From the IMG/VR virus record IMGVR_UViG_3300050029_000114, positions 22,052 through 86,051 of that record: a stretch of DNA of 64,000 nt; one strand, 5' to 3'. A program made the position numbers and the translations under genes. This stretch comes from a virus. The notes under the pieces are model-generated. The model made no database searches. It saw only the letters and a program-made list of their open reading frames with translations, and was not told the origin of the DNA. This document shows positions 46,741 through 62,741 of the stretch, in pieces. Positions within the stretch are counted from its first letter, which is position 1; each line of letters opens with the position of its first letter.

Positions 46741-46917
46741 CTAGACCTTCGAAGTAGTCGCCATGGCTGCGGCTCGGGCCACGGCCGCCTGGGTGCTGGC
46801 CTCCGTGACCTTCGCACCCTTCCCGGGCGCCGGACGCCCTTTCTGCGCGGCGTGGATCAGGCGGGCGTTCGTGCGGGCCTGCTGGATGCGTTCAACGATC
46901 CGGTCGGCCTGGCTCAT
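46741..46917 (-). CDS. Small basic protein after the portal gene
   Basis: A 58-residue protein (MSQADRIVERIQQARTNARLIHAAQKG). Helical, basic, Ala-rich C-terminus. ATG overlaps the portal stop (ATGA). No family; a minor head protein or internal peptide is possible. Confidence 0.65.
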   Translation of the reverse strand: MSQADRIVERIQQARTNARLIHAAQKGRPAPGKGAKVTEASTQAAVARAAAMATTSKV

Positions 46918-49900
46918 ACAAGTCCTCCCTGGCGGGCGATCCGCAAGATAGTCCGGTAGAGGGCGTCGGCGCTCATCGGGTTATGCGGGTCGTCGATCCC
47001 CGGTGGCACCAACTGGTCGAGTCGGCGCATCGCGGCCTGCTCCTCGGTCCGGTACATCGGCCCCCACTCGTCCTGGCTTTCGCCCGTGAACCTGGCGACC
47101 TCGGCCTCCAAGCTCGTAACCTCCTGCACGTAGTCGGCCTCGGTCATTTCCCATGCTGGGGTGCCGCCACGCTCGGCGGCGCTCAGGATCATGCGGGCCT
47201 CGTCGGCCTGGGCGGTCGCCTCGACGCGGGCTATCTCGGCGGCCGCCTCGGCCCGGTTCGCCATGATCGAGTTCAAGTCGTACGGGGAATCGATGAGGCT
47301 GTTCACGTTGAGCCCGCCATACCGGGTCGTGTCGACGATGGCCCGGCCGTTGCTCAGGGTGTTCGCCGCGTCGATGATGCGTGTCTCGGTGAGCCATATC
47401 TGCATGGCTTCGTCGGTCGTCAACTCGCGGCCCAGCAGCCGCGACAGGCTGGCGGCTATCTCGTCGGGGCTCAACGCCGTCGAATCCCCCGCCAACGCAA
47501 ACCAGTTTTGGGTCAGCCGGGATGTTTCCTTGTCGGTCAGCGCGTCGTACCAGTCGGCGTTGTACCCGCCCGGCCTCACGTACTCGCCGTTCACGAGTAC
47601 CGACTGCGGGGGCCGCTGCACCATGCCCTTGTCGGCCTCGGCGTTCTGCAACAGCGACGTGTGCTCGTCCCTGATCCCGCCCAAGATGTCCCTCAACTCG
47701 GAACGGATCGCGTCGACCTCGCCCTTCGCCCACGCTTCAAGCTCGGCCGTGACTTCGCCGTCGGCCTGCGCGAAACCAAGCAAGTCGGCGAGAGCTCCAG
47801 GGTCGAGAGTGCTCGCCGTCCCGGTGTCCGCCATGCTCGTGCCCTCGTCAACGGCGGCGCCCTGGTCAACGAGGTCGCCGTTCTCGTCGACCACCGGGCT
47901 CGGTTCGCCGTTCGTGTCGATGATCACGGGCGCCATGTCGCATGTGCAGCCGTCGTGGTCGCCCGGGAAGAAGAAGTCTGTTTCCGGCCAACCCTCATTG
48001 TTCGCCAACACGTCGTCGTCGAAGTTCACGAACGTCACGCCGTCGAGGGACTGGTGCGGCTCGAATGGCCGCTCGGCGCCACCCCACTGCCACTCGTATC
48101 CGTCGATGCCGCCACCGGCCGCGTCGACGACGCCCATCATCGCCTCGCCCGTCGCCACTCCGCCCAGCGGGTTCCCGCCCGCGTCGGTGACCGGTTGGCC
48201 GTTCCCGCCTTGCGGGTCGGCACCACCGGCTATCCCCATCGATTCGCGCACCAGCGACGAAGGGATCGTGATCGAAGGGTCGGCTTCGCCCAAGCCTGGC
48301 GCCCCGGCGGTCGGGTCGTACAGGCGTTGCCCGGCTAGGGCGGTCAACGAGTCCGTCAGGTTCGTGACGGCGGCGTCGGTCGCGGCCTGGGCTCCTGCCA
48401 TCAGATCGTCGACAGCGGTTTGCGGTGGGGCTCCCAGCCCGGCCTCGATGGCGGTCAACGCCTGGGAGCGGGCCAGGTCGATCCACGCCCCGGTGTCCTC
48501 GGCGAGTCCGTCGAACGCCCCGGCCAGCGGGTCGTCGACTCCGGCCGCGGCAACTAGCTCCGGGCCGCATGTCACCGTCACGAGCCGATTCGGCTTGTCC
48601 TTGATCAACGCTGCGATCAGAGTTTTCTCGCCACCCTTCGCCCGGTGGGTCGCTGCCCGTATCTTCGCTCCGGCGCGCTCCAGGGCCCGGCGCATCGCCA
48701 CGTCCGACTCGATCAGGATGCGGTGCCGTAGCTGGCGGTCTATCTCCGTGAGGCGGGCCCCGACGTTGGTTGCCACTCCGGCGGCCTGGAACGCCTTAGC
48801 GAGCCCTGTGGGGGCCTCTCCTGCCCGAATCTCGGCCCCGGCCGGGGCCGTGTGTGCGGCTGCTGCGGGTGGGGTTGGGGCCGCGGCCGGGGCGGGCGGC
48901 GGGGCGGGCGGCGGGCTGCCTGGGCCCGGTATCGGCATGGCCGGGCCCTGCACGGGTGGCACGTTCGATCCTGGCATCTCGACGATGCCGGACTGAGGGG
49001 CCGGGACGAGAACGCCGGGGAACAGCCCGGTCCTTGCTAGAAGCTGGGAGAACAGGAACGGGTCCATGCGCGGCGAGTTGAGCATCAAGCGGAGAAGTTT
49101 CTCGTCGTCGTCGGGTGCGTCGTCCTCCCTGTACCCGACGTATCGGCGGCGGGCCTCCTCGCTGATCACGCCGTCGCTGAACGCCTGCTGGGCGTTCTCA
49201 GCCTGGTCCGGATGGACGATCAGGGCGGTCGCGTCGAACCACACGAAGATCGTCCGGGCGACCGCGGGGTCTACACCGGCCTCGATGAGCGCGCCCTGGA
49301 AGTATCCGGCCGTCAGGGCGTCGCACACGAGGATCGCCCTGGGCTCGATGTGGCTGTCGAACTCCTCCTCCTTGATGGTGGCGGCGTTCGCGAACGTCGT
49401 GTTCATCATCCCGAGCGTGACCTCGACGGGCATGTTCAACCCTCGGGCGATCCGCAATATCCGCTGGTCTATCTCCGCCGCCAAGATCGGGTCGCGGGGC
49501 CGGGAGAGGATCAGGTGCCGAACCTCTTTCAGCACTTCAGCCGGGCCCCGGATCACCACCGGCACGACGGCGGCGGCGCTGCCTTCCTCCTGTATCGGCG
49601 TGATCATCGACTCGGCAAGGTCGGCCGAGAACGGATCTTCCGTCTCCTCGCCATCGCCACCGTCGCGGGTCGGGTCGGCGCTCCCGAAGCTCAGTTCGCT
49701 CGGCACGAGCAGGATGCCGCTACTTAGCCGGGACTTGGCCCCGGCCCGAACCTCCCGGGACAGCAGCAGCAGCGCCTCGCACTCGCTGAGCACGCCCCGC
49801 ATCGCGCACGTCGCCAACGCCGAGATACGCGGGTGGCGCTCCCACATGCGGATCACCACGTCGTCGGCCGGTACCGGCGTGCCGCCCTGGCTGTTCCCCA

Positions 49901-51605
49901 GCCCGTCCCGCACGATGTACTCGTCGCCCACGACGGTCAGTTCGTCCACCGACCGTATCTGCCACTCCTCGTCTCCGGTGTCGGCGTCCTCGTGGCCGTG
50001 CAGGTAGCACTCGGCGGCGACCTCGAAGTTGAGGCTCATCTCCCGCACCAACGCGCTCTGACCGCCCTCGGTCGACCGCAACCGGGCGAGGGTCGCCATC
50101 GCTATCTTCGCCACCGTCGCATCGACGTTCGCCTCGTCGCTGTCGACCGCGATCGGCGCCTGCTCGGGGTCCGGCTGCACCGCGGCGTACAGGCGCAGCT
50201 TCGACATCAGGTTCGCCAGGAAGCTCGTCGAGTTGCCGGTGTAGTAGACGGTCCCGTTGCGGCGGGCCAGCCAGGTTCCGTTCGCTGTCGTCGGGCACCA
50301 AATCGTCCCGGTGTAAGTGGTCCGGGTGAGGGAGCAGTTGCGGAGCCCGACTGTCACCTTGCGCTTGATGGTCAGGAGCGAGCGGTCCTCGGTTCGGTCG
50401 CGCCGAATCTGTGGAAGGCGACCACTCAGGATGCAGGCCAACGCCACGGGCTCTAACCATCGGCTGTTCTTTTGGCCGATGATCGTCGTGCCGTCCGGCT
50501 TGACGTGGCCGTCCGCGGCTATCGAAGTTGCTATGAACAGTTCAAGCTGGGCAGCGGTTAATGCGAGGATGAACCCGTCGGCTACCTGCTTGCCCGGCGC
50601 CACTGAAAGCAGCAGGGCGGACGCTGCGAGGTTCATCTTGAAATGCGAGATGGTCGAGTTAGGCGGCCGGTACTCACGCCATGCGGGCTCCGGGTTAGTC
50701 GTCCTGCCCGCGCCTAGTGACTCGGCCTCTGGCCCGATGAGCGCGGTGAGCGCCGCCCGGATGCGGGCCACGTTCTCGGGGTACGCGCTGTGCGACTGGT
50801 AGATAACGGCACGGCGCCGGTTGATCGTCCCCTCAGTCCAGAACCATGCCACTAGTTCGACCAGCGCATCCGACCATTTCGGGTCGGTCGGCAAGTCTGC
50901 GCTCGGCGCTGCTGTGAGCAGGCGGAACGGATGGTGGCCGCCCACCTTGCATCGGTCGCCGATGCTGGCTAGCTCCTCTGACGTTGCCCAGCCAGTCAGC
51001 CAATGCCTAGGGCCCGCGCTATCCCGCTGGCGCTCGGTCGGCCAGCGGTGCCCGAGGCTCGACAGCGAAGAATGGTCCCGGCCCTCCACCGACAACATCG
51101 GCTCATCGGCAACCTCAAACCGGTTGACCGCCTCGACCGGCTGCCACTCGCTCAACCCGGTCGCCGTGTTCAACGTCAGCGCCCGGTCGCCCTCCTCTAC
51201 CTCATCGACCGACAACCAACCCCGTGTCGTGAGGATTTCGGACATACGGTCCAAACAGTAATGAACTTCACCAATTTCATCGAAGTAGTCCCATGCCTCG
51301 CTCTGCCAGGTTTGGCGGCGGCGGCGGGCCCCGGCGACGGCCCTGCGGTCGTGTAGGTCGACTCGTGCCGCGCTGGCGATCAGGGCCGGTTGGGTGTTCG
51401 TCCGGCGCCCGAATGTGTGCGCTTTCGCCGGGAGGACCGCGTCCGGCGTGACGGTGCCCTGCGTGGCCCGCTTGCTCTTGCTCCTCGCCACCGACCTGCC
51501 CGGTTCGGGTTCGGTCGGCGGCGGGCTCGCCGCTGTCACCGCGTCAGTGCCTAGGTGCTCCTCCCGGCGTCGCCGCTCGCTCGGTGTCTCCCGCGCCCCG
51601 GCCAT
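46914..51605 (-). CDS. Portal protein with intein and MuF-like C-terminal region
   Basis: A 1563-residue precursor starting MAGARETPSE (TGATG overlap with the upstream gene). Extein parts: QTWQSEAWDYFDEIGEVHY then STSFLANLMSKLRLY, the conserved actinophage portal helix, interrupted by a 342-residue intein. The portal core continues to about residue 950. Near residues 1180-1225, PHQSLDGVTFVNFDDD...FPGDHDGCTCDMAP resembles the MuF minor-head motif, and about 300 helical residues follow. The spliced product is about 1221 residues. No separate MuF gene is seen, so portal and MuF functions appear fused. Confidence 0.85.
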   Translation of the reverse strand: MAGARETPSERRRREEHLGTDAVTAASPPPTEPEPGRSVARSKSKRATQGTVTPDAVLPAKAHTFGRRTNTQPALIASAARVDLHDRRAVAGARRRRQTWQSEAWDYFDEIGEVHYCLDRMSEILTTRGWLSVDEVEEGDRALTLNTATGLSEWQPVEAVNRFEVADEPMLSVEGRDHSSLSSLGHRWPTERQRDSAGPRHWLTGWATSEELASIGDRCKVGGHHPFRLLTAAPSADLPTDPKWSDALVELVAWFWTEGTINRRRAVIYQSHSAYPENVARIRAALTALIGPEAESLGAGRTTNPEPAWREYRPPNSTISHFKMNLAASALLLSVAPGKQVADGFILALTAAQLELFIATSIAADGHVKPDGTTIIGQKNSRWLEPVALACILSGRLPQIRRDRTEDRSLLTIKRKVTVGLRNCSLTRTTYTGTIWCPTTANGTWLARRNGTVYYTGNSTSFLANLMSKLRLYAAVQPDPEQAPIAVDSDEANVDATVAKIAMATLARLRSTEGGQSALVREMSLNFEVAAECYLHGHEDADTGDEEWQIRSVDELTVVGDEYIVRDGLGNSQGGTPVPADDVVIRMWERHPRISALATCAMRGVLSECEALLLLSREVRAGAKSRLSSGILLVPSELSFGSADPTRDGGDGEETEDPFSADLAESMITPIQEEGSAAAVVPVVIRGPAEVLKEVRHLILSRPRDPILAAEIDQRILRIARGLNMPVEVTLGMMNTTFANAATIKEEEFDSHIEPRAILVCDALTAGYFQGALIEAGVDPAVARTIFVWFDATALIVHPDQAENAQQAFSDGVISEEARRRYVGYREDDAPDDDEKLLRLMLNSPRMDPFLFSQLLARTGLFPGVLVPAPQSGIVEMPGSNVPPVQGPAMPIPGPGSPPPAPPPAPAAAPTPPAAAAHTAPAGAEIRAGEAPTGLAKAFQAAGVATNVGARLTEIDRQLRHRILIESDVAMRRALERAGAKIRAATHRAKGGEKTLIAALIKDKPNRLVTVTCGPELVAAAGVDDPLAGAFDGLAEDTGAWIDLARSQALTAIEAGLGAPPQTAVDDLMAGAQAATDAAVTNLTDSLTALAGQRLYDPTAGAPGLGEADPSITIPSSLVRESMGIAGGADPQGGNGQPVTDAGGNPLGGVATGEAMMGVVDAAGGGIDGYEWQWGGAERPFEPHQSLDGVTFVNFDDDVLANNEGWPETDFFFPGDHDGCTCDMAPVIIDTNGEPSPVVDENGDLVDQGAAVDEGTSMADTGTASTLDPGALADLLGFAQADGEVTAELEAWAKGEVDAIRSELRDILGGIRDEHTSLLQNAEADKGMVQRPPQSVLVNGEYVRPGGYNADWYDALTDKETSRLTQNWFALAGDSTALSPDEIAASLSRLLGRELTTDEAMQIWLTETRIIDAANTLSNGRAIVDTTRYGGLNVNSLIDSPYDLNSIMANRAEAAAEIARVEATAQADEARMILSAAERGGTPAWEMTEADYVQEVTSLEAEVARFTGESQDEWGPMYRTEEQAAMRRLDQLVPPGIDDPHNPMSADALYRTILRIARQGGLV
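50232..51257 (-). mobile_element. LAGLIDADG intein in the portal gene
   Basis: 342 residues (117-458 of the precursor). It begins with Cys1 (CLDRMSEILTTRGWLSVDEV, N-terminal block A) and has a block-B-like SLSSLGHRW. It ends in block F/G GTWLARRNGTVYYTGN followed by Ser+1. The penultimate residue is Gly rather than the usual His. LVELVAWFWTEGTI and FIATSIAADGHVKPDG are the two LAGLIDADG-type helices of a homing endonuclease. The insertion is at a conserved portal site, Y-S. Confidence 0.9.
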
Positions 51606-51949
51606 CAGCCCTCGATGTTCTTCTTCTCGATGTACCCGCCGACCGCGTGGATAGCGGAGTCGGCGGCGTTTATTAGCATCTGCACTCCGGCCACGGTCCA
51701 GAAGAACACTAGGTCGAACTTCATCGGCCATCGGGCCAGGTCTACTGCGTGGGCGATAAGCAGCATGGCTCCTGATACCCACGCGCCCATGCAGTACGGG
51801 CATTGCACCAGCCCGCCCAGCGGGTGTGACTGCGGCGGGAACCGGCGGAACCATCGCTCCCGAAGCGAGTCAAGCTGGTCGTCTGAGACGATGTAGCGGG
51901 TGATCCGGGCGGCGGCGAACGCCAACACGATCAGGGTGAGCGCGATCAT
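51605..51949 (-). CDS. DUF1360-like membrane protein
   Basis: About 114 residues if it starts at MIALTLIV; in-frame starts exist up to 52033. IVSDDQLDSLRERWFRRFPPQSHPLGGLVQCPYCMGAWVSGAMLL matches DUF1360 proteins, with a CPYC motif between two hydrophobic segments. Such proteins recur in actinophages and actinobacteria; the function is unknown. Its stop overlaps the portal ATG. Confidence 0.72.
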   Translation of the reverse strand: MIALTLIVLAFAAARITRYIVSDDQLDSLRERWFRRFPPQSHPLGGLVQCPYCMGAWVSGAMLLIAHAVDLARWPMKFDLVFFWTVAGVQMLINAADSAIHAVGGYIEKKNIEG

Positions 51950-52088
51950 CGGGTCCGGCTCCACCATGCCCTGACCCAGCACCCAGCACAACCCTTCCAT
52001 CGTCCTCGCCCTACCCATCGGTGGGTCGCGCATTCCTTCGGCCCGATGCCGGGCAGCGTCGGCTGGATAGCGTCGGGCGCTGTCGTAG

Positions 52089-52364
52089 TCATCGGGCTCG
52101 GCGTAGCTGTGCAGCGATCTGGCGGAGTGTCCGGTTGACTGTGCGGATCGTCACGCTCTGCGGTTTGCGGGCCTCTCGGCGGACTATGGCGGCTGCTCGG
52201 TCAAGTGTGGCCGCGTCGTCGGCCCGTTCGCTCATGTCGTAGGCCCGCCAGTCGGGGACGGGTTCTCCGAACAGCCGGTCGATGGGCACCGGCTCGAACG
52301 GTACCTCGCTGGGCCGCAGCCTCCGTCCGGTTCCGGGCACGATCCAGGCTCCGATCGCCGTCAC
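52089..52364 (-). CDS. Small protein after the Acb2-like gene
   Basis: A 91-residue protein. The C-terminal helix AATLDRAAAIVRREARKPQSVTIRTVNRTLRQIAAQL is basic. ATGA overlap with the Acb2-like gene suggests the two are co-expressed. No family. Confidence 0.6.
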   Translation of the reverse strand: MTAIGAWIVPGTGRRLRPSEVPFEPVPIDRLFGEPVPDWRAYDMSERADDAATLDRAAAIVRREARKPQSVTIRTVNRTLRQIAAQLRRAR

Positions 52365-52639
52365 TGGCCTCGGGCCACCGCTGCGATCGCGTGGAACAGC
52401 GTCTCCTCCAGGCGGGTCAGGGCCGTCGACTGCTCCCGGCTAAGCGGGCAAAGCTCCACGATTGCCGTCCCGAACGCCTTAGCGGCCTCCCGCAGCGAAT
52501 CCATCGTCCCGGTTACCTCGGGCCCGGTCGGCGGGTGCAGGGTCAGGTCGTGATCTACGCGCTGGCGTAACTCTTCTCGACGGTCGGAGTCCGGCACTCG
52601 GCTGATCGTGATGCCTTGGCGGACATCTCCCTCGCCCAT
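52361..52639 (-). CDS. Acb2/Tad1-type hairpin protein (anti-CBASS/Thoeris sponge)
   Basis: A 92-residue protein. The last 62 residues fit the Acb2 helical hairpin: LHPPTGPEVTGTMDSLREAAKAFGTAIVELCPLSREQSTALTRLEETLFHAIAAVAR. This matches the family pattern (Y/L)HPPTG..., IR.AAK..A..I....P.SRE.S.ALT.LEE...WA.A.IAR. Acb2 proteins bind cyclic di- and trinucleotides and related signals and so block CBASS, and some block Thoeris. Start at 52639 (TGAGATG junction). The motif's aromatic positions are changed here, so ligand range cannot be predicted. Confidence 0.82.
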   Translation of the reverse strand: MGEGDVRQGITISRVPDSDRREELRQRVDHDLTLHPPTGPEVTGTMDSLREAAKAFGTAIVELCPLSREQSTALTRLEETLFHAIAAVARGQ

Positions 52640-52640
52640 C

Positions 52641-52949
52641 TCAGGCGTCGACCGTGTCGGCGACGGCAAGCTCCGCGAGCGCGCCCGCCCGCCAACCCTT
52701 CAACGGGTGCCCGCAGCCGCAGCCGCTTCCCCGGCTCGCCCTCCACGCCACGCCGTCGGCCGTGAACTCGACCGGGTAGTGCGACGGGTCAAGTGTCCCG
52801 TCGACCTGGCCGTGCCTGAGCACGGTCGGCTGCCGCCCCTTCACCCCGAACGCATAGGCGTGCCCGTCGGCTACGACGAGCCGGACGGTCGAGTGGATCA
52901 CCCCGTCGATGGTGATGTTGGCGGGCCACAGGTCGAACTCGACGTTCAT
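52641..52949 (-). CDS. Conserved-looking beta protein
   Basis: A 102-residue protein (MNVEFDLWPANITIDGVIHS). Alternating strands, RLVVADGHAYAFGVKGRQPTVLRHGQVDGTLDPSHYPVEFTADGVAW. A Cys-x-Cys cluster GSGCGCGHPLKG near the end. Transcribed just ahead of the Acb2-like gene; no known function. Confidence 0.65.
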   Translation of the reverse strand: MNVEFDLWPANITIDGVIHSTVRLVVADGHAYAFGVKGRQPTVLRHGQVDGTLDPSHYPVEFTADGVAWRASRGSGCGCGHPLKGWRAGALAELAVADTVDA

Positions 52950-53055: not shown

Positions 53056-53232
53056 CTACCCAGCCAGCAGGTTGTCCCACTTTCCGGTTTCCTTGCGGAT
53101 GTCCTTCTCCCACTTGGGGAGGGCGGCCTCGACATCGAACTTGCCGCGCAGCGCCTCGGCGAGTTTCACGGCGTCGGCCTTCCACTCGCTGTAGCTCGGG
53201 TGGCTCGGGCTCGGGTGAGGGTGTGCCGTCAT
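53056..53232 (-). CDS. Small helical protein
   Basis: Up to 58 residues. The convincing part is SEWKADAVKLAEALRGKFDVEAALPKWEKDIRKETGKWDNLLAG, acidic/basic helical. The ATG at 53232 overlaps the -10 TAGGAT, so transcripts from that promoter cannot use it. A GTG at 53169 with GGAAGG upstream (37 residues) is the alternative. Monocistronic between a promoter and a terminator. Confidence 0.6.
   Translation of the reverse strand: MTAHPHPSPSHPSYSEWKADAVKLAEALRGKFDVEAALPKWEKDIRKETGKWDNLLAG
53214..53221 (-). promoter_or_regulatory. CCCTCACC box inside the small helical gene's 5' region
   Basis: Located just downstream of the -10. It is the one copy not placed 13-20 nt before an obvious start codon. 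Confidence 0.35.
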
Positions 53233-53270
53233 CCTACCGCGGTTCGTTCGGCTTGTCTAGGGTTTTCTAG
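53231..53270 (-). promoter_or_regulatory. CTAGAAAACCCTAGACA promoter
   Basis: Element at 53254-53270, -35 TAGACA, 17-nt spacer, -10 TAGGAT (53231-53236). Confidence 0.65.
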
Positions 53271-53565
53271 CGTCGGCTCCCGGGTAGTGCTTGGCGATGA
53301 TCCGGTCGGCCCACTCCCGGAAGTCAGGGTTCTCCGCTCGGCGGGCCTTGCAACGGGCGCACAGGTCGATCGATATCGACACCCACGGCCGGTCGGGCTC
53401 GGGCCACCACCGCTCGATCGACCCAGGTCGCTTGACGGGCTTGTCGCACACGTCGCAGATGATCCGGGGTCGCTGGCCGCGGATACAGATGAACGCGCCA
53501 TCCGGTAGCCGTCCAGCTTCCCCGGGCGCGGGTCGGCGCGCCGGGAGGCTCGGTCGGTCCGTCAT
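53257..53565 (-). CDS. Zinc-ribbon protein
   Basis: A 102-residue protein from MTDRPSLPARR (ATGA overlap upstream). CDVCDKPVKRPGSIERWW and LCARCKARRAENPDFREWADRII form a two-knuckle zinc ribbon with a C-terminal helix. Possibly nucleic-acid or host-RNA-polymerase binding; no family. Its stop codon lies in the promoter element of the next gene. Confidence 0.68.
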   Translation of the reverse strand: MTDRPSLPARRPAPGEAGRLPDGAFICIRGQRPRIICDVCDKPVKRPGSIERWWPEPDRPWVSISIDLCARCKARRAENPDFREWADRIIAKHYPGADARKP

Positions 53566-54059
53566 GCCGCGTCCCGTCTCGGTGTCGCCGCCGTCATCAC
53601 GAGCAGGTGCATGGCGAACCGCTCTACCGCCGCGGCCTCGGTCGGGGTAAGGGTCGGGTCGAAGCTCCGGCCCCGCTGGGCGGCCGCGGCGATCGCCTCG
53701 TCGCGGCTCACTGGAGTTTGACGGCCCGGTACAGGTCGCCGTTCTCGCAGGATGACGCCCTCGCCGTTCGGAAGCTCGGCCAACGTCTCGAACATGCACC
53801 CCGTCAGCGTAGGTGCAGTGCCGTTCGGGCTGGGCGTCGAGCCGGGGGCTGGCGGGTCGTACTCCCATACGCCTTCGCCGATGCGGGTCAGGCCGGGCAG
53901 CGGGGTCGGGGTCAAGTGAAGGGCCCGGTACATCGCCCGGAACACCTGAACACGGGCGAGCCCGGTCCGGCGGGCGATGTCGTCAACGAAGATGCGGCCG
54001 GGCCCGTGGGCGGCTACCTCCGCGAACACTAGGGGACTGGTGGAAGTGGAGCGGGTCAT
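53562..54059 (-). CDS. Winged-helix-like DNA-binding protein
   Basis: A 165-residue protein. Residues about 10-65: VFAEVAAHGPGRIFVDDIARRTGLARVQVFRAMYRALHLTPTPLPG, an HTH with wing. The C-terminus has another helix TPTEAAAVERFAMHLLVMTA. Possibly a transcription regulator of the early region. CCCTCACC box and AAAGGAACC site precede the ATG. Confidence 0.65.
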   Translation of the reverse strand: MTRSTSTSPLVFAEVAAHGPGRIFVDDIARRTGLARVQVFRAMYRALHLTPTPLPGLTRIGEGVWEYDPPAPGSTPSPNGTAPTLTGCMFETLAELPNGEGVILRERRPVPGRQTPVSRDEAIAAAAQRGRSFDPTLTPTEAAAVERFAMHLLVMTAATPRRDAA

Positions 54060-54074
54060 CGGGTGGTTCCTTTC

Positions 54075-54082
54075 GGTGAGGG
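54075..54082 (-). promoter_or_regulatory. CCCTCACC leader box
   Basis: 15 nt upstream of the ATG at 54059, followed by GAAAGGAACC. Confidence 0.45.
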
Positions 54083-54110
54083 TGGTGCTCGGGTGCTGCC
54101 AGGAGGGGGA

Positions 54111-54377
54111 CTAGAGGCCCCGTTCCATCTGTTGGGCGCGCTGGCGGTTCACGCCCAACGCGTCGGCGATCTGCTGGTAGGTGGCCCCCGCCTGGCGGGC
54201 CGTCGAGATGGCTGCCATCCGGCGGGTGACCACCCGGGCTCGGTTCTCGTCGTACTGCTTGACGGCCGCGTCGGCCTTGACGACCTTGCGGACAGCGGGG
54301 GCGGCCTTCGTCGCCCTCTCTGCCTTCGTCGGCTCTGCGGGGCGGCTGGGGGCTTCTCGTTGGCTTGTGGTGGTCAT
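54111..54377 (-). CDS. HTH protein
   Basis: An 88-residue protein. Basic, Ala-rich N-terminus; the C-terminal ARQAGATYQQIADALGVNRQRAQQMERGL is a clear helix-turn-helix of the sigma-70 region 4/transposase kind. Small regulator or nucleoid-type protein. ATGA overlap with the upstream gene. Confidence 0.7.
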   Translation of the reverse strand: MTTTSQREAPSRPAEPTKAERATKAAPAVRKVVKADAAVKQYDENRARVVTRRMAAISTARQAGATYQQIADALGVNRQRAQQMERGL

Positions 54378-55120
54378 TCGCTGTTCCTCTCGTCGTGCTC
54401 GATGGCCTCCTCGTCGGCGCCATCTGCTCGTGCTGCTCCGATCAGCCGTTCCATTGTCTGCGGGCTGAGGGTGATCTGCTGGCGGTAGCTGTCATACGTG
54501 ATGTCATCGCTAGTGAACCCTAGCGCGTGGAGGGGTGGCTTGACGTGCCGGTCGTAGAACGCCTGCGATGCGTCTCGGGCGGCGGCCTCGGCGGCGGCTT
54601 TCTCGCGGTACTTGACAGCGGCGGCGTCCTGCTCGATCTTGAGTAGCCGGTCCCGGCGCCGCAGGTCGGCCCGGTGGATCGCCGCAACACGTTCCTCCTC
54701 GGCGAGCCTGACCAGCCAGTCGGCCCACGGTTCCTTCAAGTCCCGCAGCTGGGCGGCGAACGGAACCCATATCGTCGGGCCGTCGATCTGCAATGTCCGT
54801 TCCTTGCGATGCCAGTACGGGCCTTCGGCTATCTGTGCGTCGGTCCACGGTTCCCCGGTCGCCGGGTCGATCGTGGTCGTGATCTGCGTCTCAACCTCGG
54901 CGGCCACGTACATGCGTGCCGTCTCCCGCCATGTACTCGTCCTCGTGACCGTGAAGCTGTAGCTGCCGTCGTTGTCGACGAGCGTCCACGGCAACCATCT
55001 GGCGTCGGCGTTCCAGTAGTGAAGCTCGGGGTCAAGGGCGATCACCCGGTGCGAGTTGCGGCCAGTGCGCCCCTCGGCATACCGGTAGATGCCGTACCGC
55101 TCTATCTTCTCGCGTCTCAT
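54374..55120 (-). CDS. Early-region protein of unknown function
   Basis: A 248-residue protein from MRREKIERYGIYR. N-terminal beta-rich half with many aromatic residues (WLPWTLVDNDGSYSFTVTRTSTW). The middle is a long charged coil (EEERVAAIHRADLRRRDRLLKIEQDAAAVKYREKAAAEAAARDASQAFY). Acidic end. Overlaps both neighbours by 4 bp. No family recognised. Confidence 0.65.
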   Translation of the reverse strand: MRREKIERYGIYRYAEGRTGRNSHRVIALDPELHYWNADARWLPWTLVDNDGSYSFTVTRTSTWRETARMYVAAEVETQITTTIDPATGEPWTDAQIAEGPYWHRKERTLQIDGPTIWVPFAAQLRDLKEPWADWLVRLAEEERVAAIHRADLRRRDRLLKIEQDAAAVKYREKAAAEAAARDASQAFYDRHVKPPLHALGFTSDDITYDSYRQQITLSPQTMERLIGAARADGADEEAIEHDERNSE

Positions 55121-55602
55121 CGCTGGGCCTCCGCTTCGAACGCCGCAGCGCCAGCGGCGTGCTCGGCGCACCATTCGCTGTCGGGCAGGGCATCCTCGGT
55201 GCAGCGGGCGACGTACGGCCAGTAGCCCGGGTTCACGACGTACTCGCATCGCGGCTGCGCCCGCTTGGTCGCCCGCTCGTAGAGGGCGGCGATCCGGTCG
55301 TCCGCGGCGGCTGTCTCCCGGTCCTTGCGACTCAGCCGTCGGGCGGGGGCGGCGTTGCGTTCCCGTTCGGCGCGGGCTCGCTGCTCGGCAGGCCGGAGCG
55401 GGCCCGCTAGCCGGGCGGCGCGCTGGTCGTCGTTCTCGACCTGCAAGATGTCGCCGACCCGGTACACCCGTTTGCCTACGTCGCCGGGCTGCACCCGGCC
55501 GATAGCCGAACCGAGATGGTGGATATTGCGGCCGACCTGCACCGTCGACTTGTGGACGTGCTCGGCTGCGATCGTGAACAGGAAGATCGGGCGGGCCGTC
55601 AT
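55117..55602 (-). CDS. Early-region protein with possible C-terminal zinc site
   Basis: A 161-residue protein. N-terminal beta part (VQVGRNIHHLGSAIGRVQPGDVGKRVYRVGDILQVEND), basic helical middle, then CEYVVNPGYWPYVARCTEDALPDSEWCAEH with three Cys and a His. KOW/SH3-like start is possible. No family. Confidence 0.6.
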   Translation of the reverse strand: MTARPIFLFTIAAEHVHKSTVQVGRNIHHLGSAIGRVQPGDVGKRVYRVGDILQVENDDQRAARLAGPLRPAEQRARAERERNAAPARRLSRKDRETAAADDRIAALYERATKRAQPRCEYVVNPGYWPYVARCTEDALPDSEWCAEHAAGAAAFEAEAQR

Positions 55603-55947
55603 GGTGTCGTGACCGCCTTCGGGAAGTGCTCCGGGCAGATCGGGCCTTCGGGCGGGTTCTCAACGAGTCGACCTCGGGTCGTCGGCTTCCCGCAACGAGC
55701 GCACTCCGCGTAGAGCGTCCACTCGACCTGCTCGTTCGCCCGGATCAGCAGGTGCGGGACATGCGACTCGAACGCGGACCAGTCGGCCGCGCCTATCGCG
55801 CTGAGCGTCGAGACGCCCATCGTCTCGCCCGCCTGGTAGAGCGCGTCCCGGGCGGTCGCCAAGTGCGACGTACGCCTGGCGGGCCCGCTCGATAGCCCGG
55901 AGAAGGCGCGCCCGGTTCGCTCGGGCCTTGCGTTCCGCGGCGGTCAT
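55599..55947 (-). pseudogene. Zinc-ribbon gene with apparent +1 frameshift
   Basis: A start ATG at 55947 overlaps the previous stop (ATGA) and encodes MTAAERKARANRARLLRAIERARQ-AYVA. The downstream conserved part, ATARDALYQAGETMG... ending with CARCGKPTTRGRLVENPPEGPICPEHF, is in the +1 frame from about 55862 (TTG) and ends in an ATGA overlap with the next gene. Joined, they give a continuous helix and zinc ribbon of about 116 residues. Either a real one-base change, a sequencing error, programmed +1 shifting, or two overlapping genes. Confidence 0.55.
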
Positions 55948-56279
55948 CGGTGAGCCCAATCGGCCGTGCCGTCCGCGCAGCGAATCGGCTCGCCGCACTC
56001 GGCGCAGAAGCCGCGCAACGGATAATCCTGGCGGGTCGCTCCGTTGACGGACGCGCCCCAGCGGTTAGTGATCGAGCCGGGCACCTGGGCGGGCTCGGGC
56101 TTATGGTCCGTAGTGGACATGGCGGGTTCCTTTCGTGGTGAGGGTGACAGCGGTGATTCTACCGCGGATCGGTCGGCTTGTCTAGGGGGTTCTAGCGGCG
56201 GCAGGTGGCGGGAATCGCTCTCGGGGCGGCGGCACACGTGGCAGGCGTCGCCGTCCGGCCAGTAGCGGTGCCGGATCAA
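55944..56279 (-). CDS. Zinc-knuckle protein with internal promoter
   Basis: From TTG at 56279 (TTGA overlap) the frame is open for 111 residues. IRHRYWPDGDACHVCRRPESDSRHLPP at the N-terminus mirrors the start of the next gene upstream (IRHRFTPRDGDRCDCWRTENDP). A complete promoter lies inside it, and a second start, ATG at 56120 with AAAGGAACC, gives a 58-residue protein MSTTDHKPEPAQ...GFCAECGEPIRCADGTADWAH, with a zinc pair. The short form is the surer one. Confidence 0.6.
   Translation of the reverse strand: MIRHRYWPDGDACHVCRRPESDSRHLPPLEPPRQADRSAVESPLSPSPRKEPAMSTTDHKPEPAQVPGSITNRWGASVNGATRQDYPLRGFCAECGEPIRCADGTADWAHR
56137..56144 (-). promoter_or_regulatory. CCCTCACC leader box
   Basis: 16 nt upstream of the ATG at 56120, between the promoter and AAAGGAACC. 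Confidence 0.45.
56156..56195 (-). promoter_or_regulatory. CTAGAACCCCCTAGACA promoter
   Basis: Element at 56179-56195, -35 TAGACA, 17-nt spacer, -10 TAGAAT (56156-56161). The start would be about 30 nt before the ATG at 56120. Confidence 0.68.
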
Positions 56280-56809
56280 CGTGCGGCCCGCTCGACCGTG
56301 ACGGGGCATTCGGCGTCGAGGTAGCGGTGCGGCCAGCGGTGCTCCACGAGGAGCGTCACCGTCCCGTCGCTGTTGTCGGTGCGCTCAGCTACCCGCAGCG
56401 GGTCAAGTCCTTCCCGGTGATCGTAGACGCCGACGATCGTGTCTCCGGGCTCGACGTGGCCTGCGGTCGTCTCTAGCCTGACGGGCGCTGGCGGGGCAGG
56501 GCGGGCCTCCTGGCGGGCTCTCGTGGCCTCCTGCCGTTGGCGGCGCTCATCGGCGCGCTCGGTGCAGGGGCGGCCCTGCTGGTGGTATCCGACGCCGAGG
56601 CTGCGGATCGTCTCGCCGCATGCGTCGCAGCGGAGCATCCGGGTCGGCCCGGTGTCTGTCTGCAAGTCAGGGATTCGGGTGAACCCGCGGACGGTTGGGA
56701 GCGTCGACCAGTGGCGGCGTGGCGGTAGCCCTTGATGGATCGGGTCGTTCTCGGTCCGCCAACAATCGCATCGGTCGCCGTCTCGGGGGGTGAACCGGTG
56801 CCGGATCAT
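56276..56809 (-). CDS. Zinc-finger protein, early region
   Basis: A 177-residue protein from MIRHRFTPRDG (ATGA overlap). CDCWRTENDPIHQ and CDACGETIRSLGVGYHQQGRPC are two metal-binding motifs. A charged helix follows, then a beta-rich end (TTAGHVEPGDTIVGVYDH). The N-terminal motif is duplicated in the next gene. No function known. Confidence 0.65.
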   Translation of the reverse strand: MIRHRFTPRDGDRCDCWRTENDPIHQGLPPRRHWSTLPTVRGFTRIPDLQTDTGPTRMLRCDACGETIRSLGVGYHQQGRPCTERADERRQRQEATRARQEARPAPPAPVRLETTAGHVEPGDTIVGVYDHREGLDPLRVAERTDNSDGTVTLLVEHRWPHRYLDAECPVTVERAAR

Positions 56810-57015
56810 CTGGCCGCCCGCTCGGCTGCCACCTTGCGCTGCCATGCCTTGACGGCGGCGAGGGTGGCCGAAATGTTGTCATGAACCTCGGCGGCCCAGC
56901 CAGCGTCTCGCCACGCCGCGGCTTCCCGCTCGGCCCGGTGCTCCGTCCGGAGCGGCCCGACCCAGCCATCACGTCCGTCCCGTTCGCGGCGCACATAGAA
57001 GCTGGGGGCGCTCAT
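56806..57015 (-). CDS. Small early protein
   Basis: A 69-residue protein from MSAPSFYVRRERDGRDGWVG (ATGA overlap). Short beta part then helix REAAAWRDAGWAAEVHDN, reminiscent of small single-stranded-nucleic-acid or host-takeover proteins. No family. Confidence 0.6.
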   Translation of the reverse strand: MSAPSFYVRRERDGRDGWVGPLRTEHRAEREAAAWRDAGWAAEVHDNISATLAAVKAWQRKVAAERAAR

Positions 57016-57251
57016 CGGGGCGGCCTGAACCCTCGGGGCATGTACCGCCACTCGATGACGGTCGCGGTGCTCTCGCCGCGGGCGGCGGCACGCTTGTCCT
57101 GCCGTTTCACGGCCCGCACCAGCCGGGTCGGGGTCGTGTGGAACTCGACCTTGCCGTCCGGGTGCATGACGGCCAGCAGGCCGCTGTCGTCCCGCATCCG
57201 CTCGACGATCAGCTTGCGGACCGTCAAGGTCGGGGTCGGTGAGTCGGTCAT
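57012..57251 (-). CDS. Small early protein
   Basis: A 79-residue protein. Beta-rich N-terminus (LTVRKLIVERMRDDSGLLAVMHPDGKVEFHT) and a basic helix VRAVKRQDKRAAAR. ATGA overlaps on both sides. No family. Confidence 0.6.
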   Translation of the reverse strand: MTDSPTPTLTVRKLIVERMRDDSGLLAVMHPDGKVEFHTTPTRLVRAVKRQDKRAAARGESTATVIEWRYMPRGFRPPR

Positions 57252-57487
57252 CGTCCGGTCCCGTCGTAGCGGCGAACGGTGTCCTCGTTCTTCAGGGTGA
57301 CCTCGGTGCGATTGCCGCCAAGGTCACGCAGCGTGACGCGCACGCCGTTCGTCGGCAGTTCACCGTTCCGGGTGTTACGCGGATAGAACACGACGTGCGA
57401 GACGTTACGAACGTATTGGCGGCGGTTGTCGTGACGGATGATGTCGCCCCGGTTCAACCGGAACGCTGGGATCGTGGTGAGGGCCAT
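57248..57487 (-). CDS. Small beta protein, first gene of an early operon
   Basis: A 79-residue protein (MALTTIPAFRLNRGDIIRHDNRRQYVRNVSHVVFY). An SH3-like barrel is plausible, with the NRGDII...VRNVSH pattern frequent in actinophage early genes. The ATG is 6 nt after TAGGAT, so the mRNA may be leaderless. Heads a run of nine overlapping genes to 54111. Confidence 0.65.
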   Translation of the reverse strand: MALTTIPAFRLNRGDIIRHDNRRQYVRNVSHVVFYPRNTRNGELPTNGVRVTLRDLGGNRTEVTLKNEDTVRRYDGTGR

Positions 57488-57493
57488 ACGTCC

Positions 57494-57530
57494 ATCCTAC
57501 TCCTCGGCGGTTCTGTCTAGGGGTTTCTAG
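57494..57530 (-). promoter_or_regulatory. CTAGAAACCCCTAGACA promoter
   Basis: Element at 57514-57530, TAGGAT at 57494-57499. The spacer is only 14 nt, shorter than in the other copies. Confidence 0.5.
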
Positions 57531-57961
57531 CGCATCCTGTCAAGCTGGCGGCGGAGGGCGGCAAGCTGGCGGGTGATGTCGGGCCGCATGGGCAGCCCGG
57601 CCTCCCGGGACCGCTGGTGGGCCTCCGTCAGAATGTCCTCCCGCATCAGCGCGCGGCCTAGCTCACCCTCCCCGGCGCGGCCTAGCTGGGTCAGGCACTC
57701 CTCCTTCGTGCTTAGGGCGGAGCGGGCGATCCGCTGGCTGTCCGGGTCGGAGTGGTCTACCCGTGCCAGTCTGCGGGCGGTCCGGGCCGCCTCCCGGTAC
57801 CGGCCGACTAGCTGGCGGCGGGTCGCCGTCGACATCACCCGTGGTGGTGGCAGCATGACGCGGACCTGCCCGGACAGGATGCCGTGGAGGCGCGCCTGGG
57901 CCGGGTCCGGCTCCGGTGGCTGTAGCGGCTCCCCCTCGGGCTCGGGTGACGGGTCGGTCAC
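57527..57961 (-). CDS. Helical protein, early region
   Basis: A 144-residue protein from GTG 57961 (GTGA overlap). Pro-rich acidic N-terminus then helical bundle (MSTATRRQLVGRYREAARTARRLARVDHSDPDSQRIARSAL ... PDITRQLAALRRQLDRM). No family. Confidence 0.6.
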   Translation of the reverse strand: MTDPSPEPEGEPLQPPEPDPAQARLHGILSGQVRVMLPPPRVMSTATRRQLVGRYREAARTARRLARVDHSDPDSQRIARSALSTKEECLTQLGRAGEGELGRALMREDILTEAHQRSREAGLPMRPDITRQLAALRRQLDRMR

Positions 57962-58209
57962 GGTCCCTCCCCCGCGACGATCAGGGCCATGAGCGACCAT
58001 ATGGCTGCGGCCGAGTGGCCGTTAAGCTCGCCGAGAACGTTGAGAACGCCGGTCAGGCAGGTGGCAAGCTCGACAGCGAGAGCTCGGGGGTCCGGGTCGG
58101 CCTCAATCTCGCCGACCGCGGTGGCGTGATCCTCGGCCAGCATCGCTGTCACGACCCTGAACATCGTGCGGGCCGTCTCGGCGGTCGGCCCGTGGATGGG
58201 GGCGCTCAC
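57958..58209 (-). CDS. Small helical protein after the phosphoesterase gene
   Basis: An 83-residue protein from GTG 58209 (GTGA overlaps both ends). All-helical (AETARTMFRVVTAMLAEDHATAVGEIE ... LATCLTGVLNVLGELNGHSAAAIW). No signal peptide. Possibly a regulator or immunity-type partner of the exported enzyme, by position only. Confidence 0.6.
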   Translation of the reverse strand: MSAPIHGPTAETARTMFRVVTAMLAEDHATAVGEIEADPDPRALAVELATCLTGVLNVLGELNGHSAAAIWSLMALIVAGEGP

Positions 58210-59675
58210 GTCGGGTCGTCCGGGTTGTCGGGGTTCGCCTTCAACTGCCGGTAGGTGGCGGCCGGGACTTTCCGTTCTGGCAGCCAGTGCGGGGCGCTGG
58301 GCGGCGGGAGCGTGAAGTCGAACACCCGGTGGAAGTCGTAGGCGGTGCCGTCCGGTGTGGTCGGGCTGATAGGCGGCGCATTGAACAACCACTCGATCAG
58401 GGCGTCCACGCTGGTCGTGTCGGCGGGGGTGCTGTCCGTCCAGCCGAGCCGGACGTACGCTCCCTCGAACACGGCCGGGATGCGCAACCCGACGGGTCGG
58501 CCGTTGATGATCTTCTGGCCGACGGTCCGGTCCAGTTCCCCGGTGTAGAAACACCCGCAGTCGTCCCACGTTTTCATGAACACGGCCCCGGCGTGCTGCG
58601 GGCCGCCCTGCATGGCGTTGATCACCCGGGCGGTCATGTTCTCCCCAACCTGCCAACTGTCGAGATTGTGCTGGCTGTAGTTGCCCGCATCGTCCTGGCC
58701 GGGCAAGAAGAAGCTCACCTGGGGCAGCGTGCCGTTCGCGGCGTCAACGAAGTACTGGCTGTCCGGCTTCAAGTTGTTGCCCTCGGCCGTGTAGATGCAA
58801 CTGGCGAAGCTCGGGCAGATCGCAAACTGGTAGCTGCCGACCCCGGGGCTCGCGGCCCCGTAGATACGCCACGTCACCCCGGCGGCATCCAAGTCTTGGA
58901 ACAGGGTCGGTATGTCGGGCTGCACGGCTGACGGCCGGTAGGCGCCCTGGTATCCGGGGATGCCGGGCAAGCTGCTCGTGTAACACGAAGGCTGATAGCT
59001 CGTCACACCGGTCGGGCTGCGCCACTGTGCGTCGTCGTTCCCGTTGCACGCCCAGCGGGCCCCGAGATGGGTGATGCTGCTGTAGGTCGGCAACTGGCCG
59101 GTGAAGCCTTGGGTCTGGCCTGCCGTGGCGAAGTCGGTGTGCCCGGTCCAGCTTGGCACCGGGTTAGCGGAGTGGTAGTTATCCGCGACGGTTCCCTGCT
59201 GCATGAGTGCCGTCTCCGTGAACGCGGCGGAGGCGGTGATGTACTCGTAGCAGTCTCCTCCTCGATGGCCGGGGTTACAGCCGGTCACGGAGGCCCACTG
59301 GTTATTCATCGCCAGCATCTGGCCGGGGACACCGTGATCTATCTCCGGGGGGATATCGCCCTGGACGGTCGGGGTCGCTGTGACCGGAACACCTTTCTTC
59401 GTGAACGTGTGGATGAGGGCGGTCACGTCGAATGGCTGGCCGGTCCGCGGGTCGACGTTACAGGGCGTCGGCCGGGAGACGGTCATGCAGGCGGCGCCTA
59501 GGGCATGGTCAAAGCTGTTGTTCTCGTCAAGCTGGATGATCAGATGACGGATAGGGGTAGGGAGGGCGGCGGCTCGTAGAGACGCCTGGGAGACTCCGGC
59601 TACGGATAGCGCGGAGAGAGCGGCCATCGCCCCTAGCGAGGCTAGAGCGACCGCTCGTACGGTTCTACGGGTCAT
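58206..59675 (-). CDS. Exported phosphoesterase, phospholipase C/acid phosphatase family
   Basis: A 489-residue protein. Signal peptide 1-31 (AVALASLGAMAALSALSVAG). HLIIQLDENNSFDHALG (44-60) is the N-terminal metal and nucleophile motif of the family (usually MENRSFDH). FMKTWDDCGCFYTGE corresponds to the TxDExGGxYDH motif, and TTSVDALIEWLFNAPPISPTTPDG to the HTSVxxFIEWxFGLPPLT region. Known members cleave phospholipids or phosphomonoesters outside the cell. Several motif residues differ, so substrate is open. CCCTCACC leader and AAGGAAGG site precede the ATG. Confidence 0.83.
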   Translation of the reverse strand: MTRRTVRAVALASLGAMAALSALSVAGVSQASLRAAALPTPIRHLIIQLDENNSFDHALGAACMTVSRPTPCNVDPRTGQPFDVTALIHTFTKKGVPVTATPTVQGDIPPEIDHGVPGQMLAMNNQWASVTGCNPGHRGGDCYEYITASAAFTETALMQQGTVADNYHSANPVPSWTGHTDFATAGQTQGFTGQLPTYSSITHLGARWACNGNDDAQWRSPTGVTSYQPSCYTSSLPGIPGYQGAYRPSAVQPDIPTLFQDLDAAGVTWRIYGAASPGVGSYQFAICPSFASCIYTAEGNNLKPDSQYFVDAANGTLPQVSFFLPGQDDAGNYSQHNLDSWQVGENMTARVINAMQGGPQHAGAVFMKTWDDCGCFYTGELDRTVGQKIINGRPVGLRIPAVFEGAYVRLGWTDSTPADTTSVDALIEWLFNAPPISPTTPDGTAYDFHRVFDFTLPPPSAPHWLPERKVPAATYRQLKANPDNPDDPT

Positions 59676-59959
59676 GCTGGTGATCCTTCCTTTTCGGTGA
59701 GGGATGCTGCTGGTTTGCCTAGCTCTTGCGCGAGGACCCGGATCGCCTGGGCCATCGTCTCCATTCCTTCCTCGGAGAGCAGATGGCCCGTATGCCAGGA
59801 CCCGCAGAAACAGCAGCGGTAGGCGGCGAGCGGGCGGCCCTCCTCAGTCTTGTTCCGGTTGTAGGCGGCGGCCCGGCGGCGGGCCTCATCCTGGCCTAGC
59901 CGCGGTTTATGACCACAGGCGCGGTCCCGGATCGCTTCGGCCTCCGGGTAGGTGATCAC
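59672..59959 (-). CDS. Zinc-ribbon protein
   Basis: A 95-residue protein from GTG 59959 (GTGA overlap). YRCCFCGSWHTGHLLSEEG is a CxxC..H ribbon seen in small actinophage proteins, preceded by KPRLGQDEARRRAAAYNRNK. Its 3' end contains the CCCTCACC box of the phosphoesterase gene. Confidence 0.68.
   Translation of the reverse strand: MITYPEAEAIRDRACGHKPRLGQDEARRRAAAYNRNKTEEGRPLAAYRCCFCGSWHTGHLLSEEGMETMAQAIRVLAQELGKPAASLTEKEGSPA
59696..59703 (-). promoter_or_regulatory. CCCTCACC leader box before the phosphoesterase gene
   Basis: 20 nt upstream of the ATG at 59675, within the 3' end of the preceding gene. Confidence 0.45.
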
Positions 59960-60147
59960 GACGGGTCCTCCCGGCGGCGGAGGAGCAGGTAGATACGACC
60001 CCCTAGCCACGGCCCGAGGAACAGGACCAGGAACAAGCCGCACGCCATCGAGCGGGACCCGCCCAACCCGGCGGCGGTCCCGGCGAATATCCCGGTCACC
60101 CCGAGGAGGACGGCGGAGAGGAACCGGGAGAGGTCACGGCGGGTCAC
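59956..60147 (-). CDS. Two-helix membrane protein
   Basis: A 63-residue protein from GTG 60147 (GTGA overlap). Helices at about 9-28 (FLSAVLLGVTGIFAGTAAGL) and 34-55 (MACGLFLVLFLGPWLGGRIYLLL), positively charged end RRRE. No family. Confidence 0.65.
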   Translation of the reverse strand: MTRRDLSRFLSAVLLGVTGIFAGTAAGLGGSRSMACGLFLVLFLGPWLGGRIYLLLRRREDPS

Positions 60148-60374
60148 CGGACCCTCTGACTTTTCCCGCGGCTCCCCCGGATCGGAAGCGCCCATGCCTG
60201 GCGGCGGCGCTCGTAGTCAGCGCGGGCGGCGCGCCGGGTATCGATCTGCTCGATGATCCGGTCCGCGATCAGCCGGTCGGCCTTCGTGGACCGGAGGCCC
60301 CGGAGCACACGCTCCCACTGGCTCTCCGTCAGCGTCACATCCGCGTGGCAGCGGGGTTCGGGAAAGTGCTTCAT
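60144..60374 (-). CDS. Small basic helical protein
   Basis: A 76-residue protein (MKHFPEPRCHADVTLTESQWERVLRGL). Helical and basic (ADYERRRQAWALPIRGSRGKSQRVR). ATGA overlap upstream with a 48-residue ORF and GGAGGAGG before the ATG. No family. Confidence 0.6.
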   Translation of the reverse strand: MKHFPEPRCHADVTLTESQWERVLRGLRSTKADRLIADRIIEQIDTRRAARADYERRRQAWALPIRGSRGKSQRVR

Positions 60375-60517
60375 AGGTATCCTCCTCCTGCCATGTAGGC
60401 GGTCAGGGCGGCAACGATGGCCGCCACGGTATCCGGGTCGGCCTGCTCGGGCCGGGGAGCCCGGAAGCCGGGGCTGTAGGTGCGGGTCGGGGCCAGGATC
60501 GCCGCGCCGCTAGCCAC
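60371..60517 (-). CDS. 48-residue protein
   Basis: GTG start overlapping the upstream stop; ends in an ATGA overlap. AILAPTRTYSPGFRAPRP then QADPDTVAAIVAALTAYMAGGGYL, the second part a clear helix. Missed by length filters but well placed. Confidence 0.55.
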   Translation of the reverse strand: MASGAAILAPTRTYSPGFRAPRPEQADPDTVAAIVAALTAYMAGGGYL

Positions 60518-60842
60518 GGTCGTCCGTCCACGAAAGAATCTCGTCGGCTCGGGCCAGAAGCTCCCGGTACGCCTCCCACGTGCCCTCGGTCCCGGCGATC
60601 CGGTCGGTGCCCTGCAACGTGTGGAGGGCGGTGTGCGTCGCCCACATCGCGGGCAGGAAGCTGGCGACCGGGTTCCACGTCAGGGTGTTCGGGTTCCACA
60701 CGGCGACGGTCGCGGTCGACTGCTTGGCGTAGTGGGTGTCGTGGTGAATCTGGAAGCGGAGCAGGTGCCCGGTGTGCAGCGTTTCGCCGCTGTCCAAGTC
60801 CCAGCCCTGCCCGTGCTGCGTGACGTTCTGATAGTCGAGCAT
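60510..60842 (-). CDS. Early-region protein
   Basis: A 110-residue protein (MLDYQNVTQHGQGWDLDSGETLHTGHLLRFQIHHDTHY). Central beta stretch STATVAVWNPNTLTWNPVASF, C-terminal helix EAYRELLARADEIL. Follows the next gene by 2 bp. No family. Confidence 0.6.
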   Translation of the reverse strand: MLDYQNVTQHGQGWDLDSGETLHTGHLLRFQIHHDTHYAKQSTATVAVWNPNTLTWNPVASFLPAMWATHTALHTLQGTDRIAGTEGTWEAYRELLARADEILSWTDDRG

Positions 60843-60844
60843 GG

Positions 60845-61042
60845 CTATCGGCTCCTGACCACGGTCACCTGGAACTCGCTGCCGTCGTCCAGTTTCACGA
60901 CGAGCCCGAAGTTGCCGGTCAACACGCCTGCCTCGGCGAAACTGGTCGTGCTCATCACGGCGAACTGCTCGCCGTCGCCCACGCCCAGCAGGTCAGCCTG
61001 CAACGCCTCGGCCACTGCCGCTGCGAACTCGTCCTCGGTCAT
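60845..61042 (-). CDS. Small acidic early protein
   Basis: A 65-residue protein (MTEDEFAAAVAEALQADLLGVG). Helix then beta hairpin (TGNFGLVVKLDDGSEFQVTVV). First gene behind the best promoter in the window, with a 40-nt leader containing CCCTCACC and AAAGGAACC. Expected to be strongly expressed; function unknown. Confidence 0.68.
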   Translation of the reverse strand: MTEDEFAAAVAEALQADLLGVGDGEQFAVMSTTSFAEAGVLTGNFGLVVKLDDGSEFQVTVVRSR

Positions 61043-61060
61043 GGTGGTTCCTTTCGGGTA

Positions 61061-61068
61061 GGTGAGGG
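61061..61068 (-). promoter_or_regulatory. CCCTCACC leader box
   Basis: 18 nt upstream of the ATG at 61042. Confidence 0.45.
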
Positions 61069-61080
61069 TTACCGCTACCC

Positions 61081-61120
61081 ACTATAGCGCGCTAGGGCCC
61101 GGCTGTCTAGGGGTTTCTAG
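61081..61120 (-). promoter_or_regulatory. Composite promoter carrying both repeated boxes
   Basis: CTAGAAACCCCTAGACA (61104-61120) gives -35 TAGACA. After 17 nt, ending in TAGCGCGC, comes -10 TATAGT (61081-61086). It is the only place where both boxes occur in register, and shows how they fit one promoter. Confidence 0.8.
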
Positions 61121-62735: not shown

Positions 62736-62741
62736 CTAATC

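What the first reader, a model, noticed from the sequence alone, without database searches (positions are those of the whole stretch)
52361..52639. Acb2/Tad1-family counter-defence protein in an early cassette
The C-terminal 62 residues follow the Acb2 helical-hairpin pattern closely (HPPTG, SRE-S-ALT-LEE, AR end). Acb2 proteins sequester cyclic oligonucleotides made by CBASS and related signals. Its neighbours (52089-52364 and 52641-52949) are unknown and co-transcribed, so they are candidates for further anti-defence genes.
Basis: partly seen in the sequence, partly recalled or inferred. Interest (0 to 1): 0.72.

Follow-up and report, generated by a model that had tools for sequence, protein, structure and literature searches.

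The report
Phage Acb2-type nucleotide-sponge gene
This small phage gene encodes a divergent member of a widespread, already known family of proteins that soak up the bacterial alarm molecules that trigger anti-phage defence; it sits among the DNA-packaging and capsid-portal genes, not in a demonstrated early-gene cassette.

Summary
Window 52361-52639 (-) encodes a 92-aa protein matching Pfam PF24729 (Acb2/Tad1 hairpin) at E=5.8e-11, 42.8 bits against a cut-off of 27. [quoted passage not shown] Best reading: an Acb2-type cyclic-oligonucleotide sponge of an actinophage-like virus.

(1) 'Early cassette' is not supported: the gene fills a variable slot in a conserved block, CGCG gene - [slot] - DUF1360 gene - portal, seen in six other phages/contigs. 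(2) The upstream neighbour (52641-52949) belongs to that packaging/portal block, so it is a poor anti-defence candidate; the downstream 91-aa orphan shares the slot. (3) The protein is divergent where T4 Acb2 holds cyclic dinucleotides: T4 Tyr8 aligns with Leu34 (Tyr/His/Phe in 65 of 69 relatives), and a family-wide Asn is Ile85. Dinucleotide binding is therefore doubtful; trinucleotides or other ligands remain open. The family is large and known, so interest is low to moderate.

The parts
52361..52639 (-). Acb2/Tad1-hairpin (Acb2-type sponge) gene, 92 aa
   Evidence: PF24729 5.8e-11, phrog_1454 7e-16, AF2 helices 17-31, 40-63, 68-91 at pLDDT 89
52364..52537 (-). hairpin domain proper, residues 35-92 (Pfam match 35-90)
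   Evidence: conserved H35, R50, P65, R68, E69, R90 kept; F32L, Y34L, Y46M, W83H, N85I deviate from the family majority
52089..52364 (-). 91-aa orphan gene sharing the slot, start overlaps the sponge gene's stop by 4 bp
   Evidence: no relatives in phages or IMG/VR scans; no Pfam/PHROG/NCBIfam/PADLOC match of weight; single-sequence model poor
52641..52949 (-). CGCG-motif gene, conserved member of the packaging/portal block
   Evidence: relatives in Cece gp61, DSL-LC01, L096, L099-L102, each upstream of a DUF1360-type gene and portal
51605..52000 (-). DUF1360 / phrog_781 small protein preceding the portal
   Evidence: PF07098 2.6e-6 and phrog_781 6e-18 on the longer ORF 51605-52033; alignment A4
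46914..51605 (-). portal protein (phrog_776) with an intein-like insertion and a long C-terminal extension
   Evidence: phrog_776 6.2e-90; sequence

Best explanation
The gene encodes an Acb2-type sponge. Shown: it is a member of the Acb2/Tad1 hairpin family, has the predicted three-helix Acb2 layout, and sits with an orphan gene in a variable slot of the packaging/portal block of an actinophage-like genome. Inferred: the protein assembles as a homo-hexamer, as Acb2 does, and binds cyclic oligonucleotide signals made by host CBASS-like enzymes without cutting them, so that effectors stay off and the infected cell lives long enough to release phage. Inferred from position: it is made together with the packaging/portal genes. 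Also inferred: with Leu in place of the dinucleotide-stacking Tyr and Ile in place of a family-wide Asn, its preferred ligand is more likely a cyclic trinucleotide or another signal than 3',3'-cGAMP held in the T4 manner.
For: PF24729 and phrog_1454 matches with T4 Acb2 as positive control on the same model. [quoted passage not shown] BFVD fold matches are mostly Acb2/Tad1 hairpin proteins. Family profile finds solved 'Acb2 homolog 43' 9ptq at 6.6e-9. Core residues H35, R50, P65, R68, E69, R90 kept. The gene is an insertion relative to six syntenic loci, and two relatives of the phage lack the family, as expected of an accessory gene.
Against: T4 Y8, needed for dinucleotide binding, aligns with L34, and T4 F82 with A89. 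N85 is Ile here and Asn in all relatives sampled. No binding data, no host, no host CBASS known. Most of the family's members are untested. Foldseek against PDB did not return Acb2.
Confidence: 0.68

Rival explanations
1. A family member that has lost the usual ligand: a decaying or repurposed hairpin protein that only oligomerises or binds a different small molecule.
For: Replacement of the Tyr/His/Phe position (L34), of F32, Y46, W83 and of the family-wide Asn85.
Against: The reading frame is intact and codes like the rest of the genome; the invariant H35, R50, P65, R68, E69, R90 are kept; L023/L024 share part of the changes, so part is a sub-branch trait; T4 Acb2 has Cys and homolog 43 has Thr at the Asn position.
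Confidence: 0.17
2. A small structural or packaging protein: the hairpin serves in head or portal assembly, as its place next to the portal suggests.
For: Place between the CGCG and DUF1360-portal genes; relatives directly after the portal in Schomber and UBSmoodge and near terminase or portal in others.
Against: Six syntenic loci lack it in the slot, and Cece and DSL-LC01 lack the family entirely. Relatives elsewhere sit by tRNA clusters, toxin-antitoxin genes, integrase or RecA. T4 Acb2 in the same Pfam family is a proven sponge (PMC12657218).
Confidence: 0.1
3. A Tad1-type protein that sequesters gcADPR against Thoeris.
For: The family profile reaches solved Tad1 chains through the shared SRE..AlT..EEAlMW.N stretch.
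Against: Tad1 protomers carry an N-terminal antiparallel beta-sheet before the hairpin (PMC12043709); this protein has a helix there and no strands. The Asn shared with Tad1 is Ile here.
Confidence: 0.05

Closest known systems
Acb2 of phage T4 (Vs.4) and of Pseudomonas phage PaMx33
   Same: Same Pfam family, same predicted three-helix protomer, similar length (92 against 88 and 94 aa)
   Different: T4 Y8 is L34 and T4 F82 is A89; longer N-terminal tail; only the C-terminal 22 columns of the family profile align with T4 by hhalign
Actinophage/Paenibacillus phage hairpin proteins of phrog_1454 (Gordonia phages Schomber, Daredevil, DatBoi; Mycobacterium phage Sparky)
   Same: 34-48% identity over the hairpin
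   Different: They keep Tyr/Phe/His at position 34 and Asn at 85; most are shorter at the N terminus
Acb2 homolog 43 (PDB 9ptq)
   Same: Solved hairpin protein matched over the whole domain by the family profile (6.6e-9); six chains in the entry
   Different: Only 0.61 in a single-sequence search with this protein; Thr at the Asn85 position
Tad1 (7uav, 8kbb and others)
   Same: Shares the second-helix motif
   Different: Lacks the N-terminal beta-sheet that is part of Tad1

Membership tests
Acb2/Tad1 hairpin family (PF24729) | Score over the curated cut-off of 27 bits | tested here: met
   42.8 bits, E=5.8e-11, profile 3-58 of 58
Acb2/Tad1 hairpin family (PF24729) | Two antiparallel helices with conserved H, R, P, SRE, A..T.LEE and AR positions | tested here: met
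   Helices 40-63 and 68-91; conserved positions kept except F32 and N85
Acb2 | Short N-terminal helix plus two long antiparallel helices | tested here: met
   Helices 17-31, 40-63, 68-91, pLDDT 89; published layout in PMC10419184
Acb2 | Dinucleotide-pocket residues Y8 and F82 (T4 numbering) | tested here: not met
   Aligned with L34 and A89 in three MAFFT modes; roles of Y8 and F82 from PMC12657218. Ala at the F82 position is common to the whole hairpin sub-family, so this one speaks less
Acb2 | Homo-hexamer | not testable with these tools
   Only monomer prediction is offered
Acb2 | Binds cyclic di- and trinucleotides without degrading them; protects phage from CBASS | not testable with these tools
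   Needs binding and plaque assays
Tad1 | N-terminal antiparallel beta-sheet preceding the hairpin | tested here: not met
   No strand in the model; residues 1-34 form a tail and a helix; Tad1 layout from PMC12043709

The most novel reading that the evidence does not exclude
A branch of the Acb2 hairpin family that has given up the Tyr-stacked dinucleotide pocket and binds a different immune signal, carried as two-gene cargo with an orphan partner in the packaging/portal block, so that it is made when capsid-linked defence triggers appear.
Probability: 0.2. Interest if true: 0.5.

Novelty: new member of a known kind. Interest (0 to 1): 0.27.

Why it matters
Hairpin sponges are very common in phages, but most have only a family name and few have tested ligands. 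In this one the residue that matters for dinucleotide binding in T4 Acb2 is replaced while the rest of the core is kept, which makes it a natural test of which signals the family can hold. The variable slot between the CGCG gene and DUF1360-portal also gives a place to look for other cargo genes in actinophages.

Tried and rejected
Foldseek against PDB: no useful match for this small helical query. NCBIfam and PADLOC: no meaningful hits. A second pattern not requiring Asn85 gave 24 loci, all with Asn. A 7-sequence alignment was too diverse to scan with. The genome-contig scan gave three distant hits and no host. Neighbour 52641-52949 as an anti-defence gene: rejected on synteny. Tad1 membership: rejected, no beta-sheet. 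Pfam scan of the 26 small genes upstream (53056-63729): only a phosphoesterase and an HTH gene, no further known anti-defence family. The orphan's single-sequence structure is too poor to use. The original Acb2 and Tad1 structure papers are not held, so residue roles rest on T4 Y8 and F82 as given in PMC12657218; trinucleotide-site residues could not be mapped.

Full report
WHAT WAS CHECKED. The ORF at 52361-52639 on the - strand is intact, starts with ATG and encodes 92 residues. Pfam-A gives a single hit, PF24729 Acb2_Tad1_hairpin, E=5.8e-11, 42.8 bits against a curated cut-off of 27, residues 35-90 on profile positions 3-58 of 58. PHROGs gives phrog_1454, E=7e-16, function unnamed. The family search finds this one place in the 86,051-bp IMG/VR record that holds the window (window = 22052-86051) and nothing over the cut-off in 14 control genomes. 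T4 Vs.4, the experimentally known Acb2, hits the same model at 7.1e-20, so the model does recognise real Acb2.

WHERE IT LIES. The record is an actinophage-like genome: the portal's best phage matches are phages of actinobacteria at 30-39% identity, and almost all genes run on the - strand. Reading downstream, the order is CGCG gene (52641-52949), sponge gene (52361-52639), orphan (52089-52364), DUF1360/phrog_781 gene (51605-52000), portal (46914-51605), and further on a major head protein (35526-37304) and tape measure (9742-12030). The terminase large subunit lies near the other end of the record, at record position 1337-3091. The gap between the CGCG and sponge genes is 1 bp, and the sponge and orphan overlap by 4 bp, so translation is probably coupled (inference from spacing).

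THE NEIGHBOURS. The CGCG gene first gave only a weak hit (E=0.7) to Microbacterium phage Cece gp61, but that gene lies five genes before Cece's portal. Its C-terminal CGCG motif is also present in Actinomycetia phage DSL-LC01 and in IMG/VR loci L096, L099, L100/L101 (near-identical) and L102. In all of these a DUF1360-type small protein and then the portal follow. What lies between the CGCG gene and DUF1360 differs: nothing in DSL-LC01, a small gene and two terminase subunits in Cece, a head-morphogenesis-like gene in L096, small genes in L099-L102, and the sponge plus orphan here. Cece and DSL-LC01 have no PF24729 match anywhere. So the sponge and orphan are cargo in a variable slot of a conserved packaging/portal block. 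This removes 52641-52949 as a good anti-defence candidate and makes 'early cassette' unlikely, although expression timing was not measured and a promoter scan settles nothing. A PHROG tally over 92 nearest-neighbour proteins of relatives matched 118 families; those matched most often are terminase, portal, head protease, scaffold, RNA ligase and lysis families, so such a place is common for the family.

WHAT THE PROTEIN LOOKS LIKE. With 69 relatives in the alignment, AlphaFold2 gives helices 17-31, 40-63 and 68-91, mean pLDDT 89.2, pTM 0.73. [quoted passage not shown] Tad1 has a beta-sheet before its two helices (PMC12043709). BFVD's best fold matches are mostly Acb2/Tad1 hairpin proteins, the best at E=2.9e-3; the PDB fold search was uninformative. 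The family profile finds 'Acb2 homolog 43' (9ptq) at 6.6e-9 and Tad1 chains at 1.4e-3.

THE POCKET. In T4 Acb2, Y8A disrupts cyclic-dinucleotide binding and F82 stacks on the bound ligand (PMC12657218). Three MAFFT modes agree that Y8 aligns with L34 and F82 with A89 here. The register at Y8 also follows from the Pfam profile: T4 residues 7-83, Schomber 11-67 and window 35-90 lie on profile 1-58, 1-58 and 3-58. At position 34, 65 of 69 relatives have Y, H or F; at 32, 68 of 69 have F; at 46, 62 have Y or H; at 83, 57 have W. Position 85 is Asn in every relative sampled: 69 of 69 in a sample whose search pattern required it, 24 of 24 loci (with repeats) in a sample that did not, and 13 of 13. 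Here it is Ile. T4 Acb2 has Cys and homolog 43 has Thr there, so Asn is not needed by every sponge. Conserved H35, R50, P65, R68, E69 and R90 are kept. L023/L024 share the 'LHP...TMDSLR' stretch but keep W83 and N85, so some of the change marks a sub-branch and some is this protein's own.

MECHANISM. Most likely a sponge that holds cyclic oligonucleotides made by host CBASS-like systems. Family membership and predicted fold are shown; hexamer, ligand and anti-defence effect are inferred from homology. The lost Tyr lowers the odds of 3',3'-cGAMP binding in the T4 way. Acb2 and Tad1 also bind trinucleotides at a separate site (PMC12043709), so that activity may remain; the residues of that site could not be mapped because the structure papers are not held.

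HOW ORDINARY IT IS. tblastn with this protein matches 203 phage records at E<=0.1. Putative Acb2 genes are already reported in actinophages (Statler, PMC13348362; Xandras and BigBubba, PMC11953737). This is a new, somewhat divergent member of a known kind.

Noticed in passing
window about 50237-51257 (-), residues about 117-456 of the portal ORF 46914-51605: Intein-like insertion in the portal: starts CLDRMSEILTTRGW, ends VYYTGN before Ser, and the portal profile match resumes after it. No Pfam or NCBIfam intein model matched. A portal in L099 has a similar insertion at a different site (after WQSDAW).
   Followed up: partly
window 52641-52949; L096:2148-2471; L097:4828-5202; L098:6652-7092; L099-L102: Undescribed small gene family with a C-terminal CGCG motif, found upstream of DUF1360-portal in diverse actinophages; no Pfam, PHROG or NCBIfam model matches it.
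   Followed up: partly
window 58206-59675 (-): 489-aa protein of the PF04185 phosphoesterase family (E=9e-30) with a signal-peptide-like N terminus among small genes.
   Followed up: no
window 14607-15755 (-): RtcB-type RNA ligase (PF01139, E=3e-110), which could repair RNA cut by host defences.
   Followed up: no
L006:3974-6262 and L016:2986-5289: In Gordonia phages Schomber and UBSmoodge the hairpin gene lies in the order portal - hairpin - RNA ligase - ADP-ribosyltransferase, a possible counter-defence group inside the structural genes.
   Followed up: no
L012:1007-1210 (NC_048693.1) and KT361654-KT361657, MH460827: Hairpin genes of several Paenibacillus phages are annotated as phosphomannomutase, apparently a propagated misannotation.
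   Followed up: no
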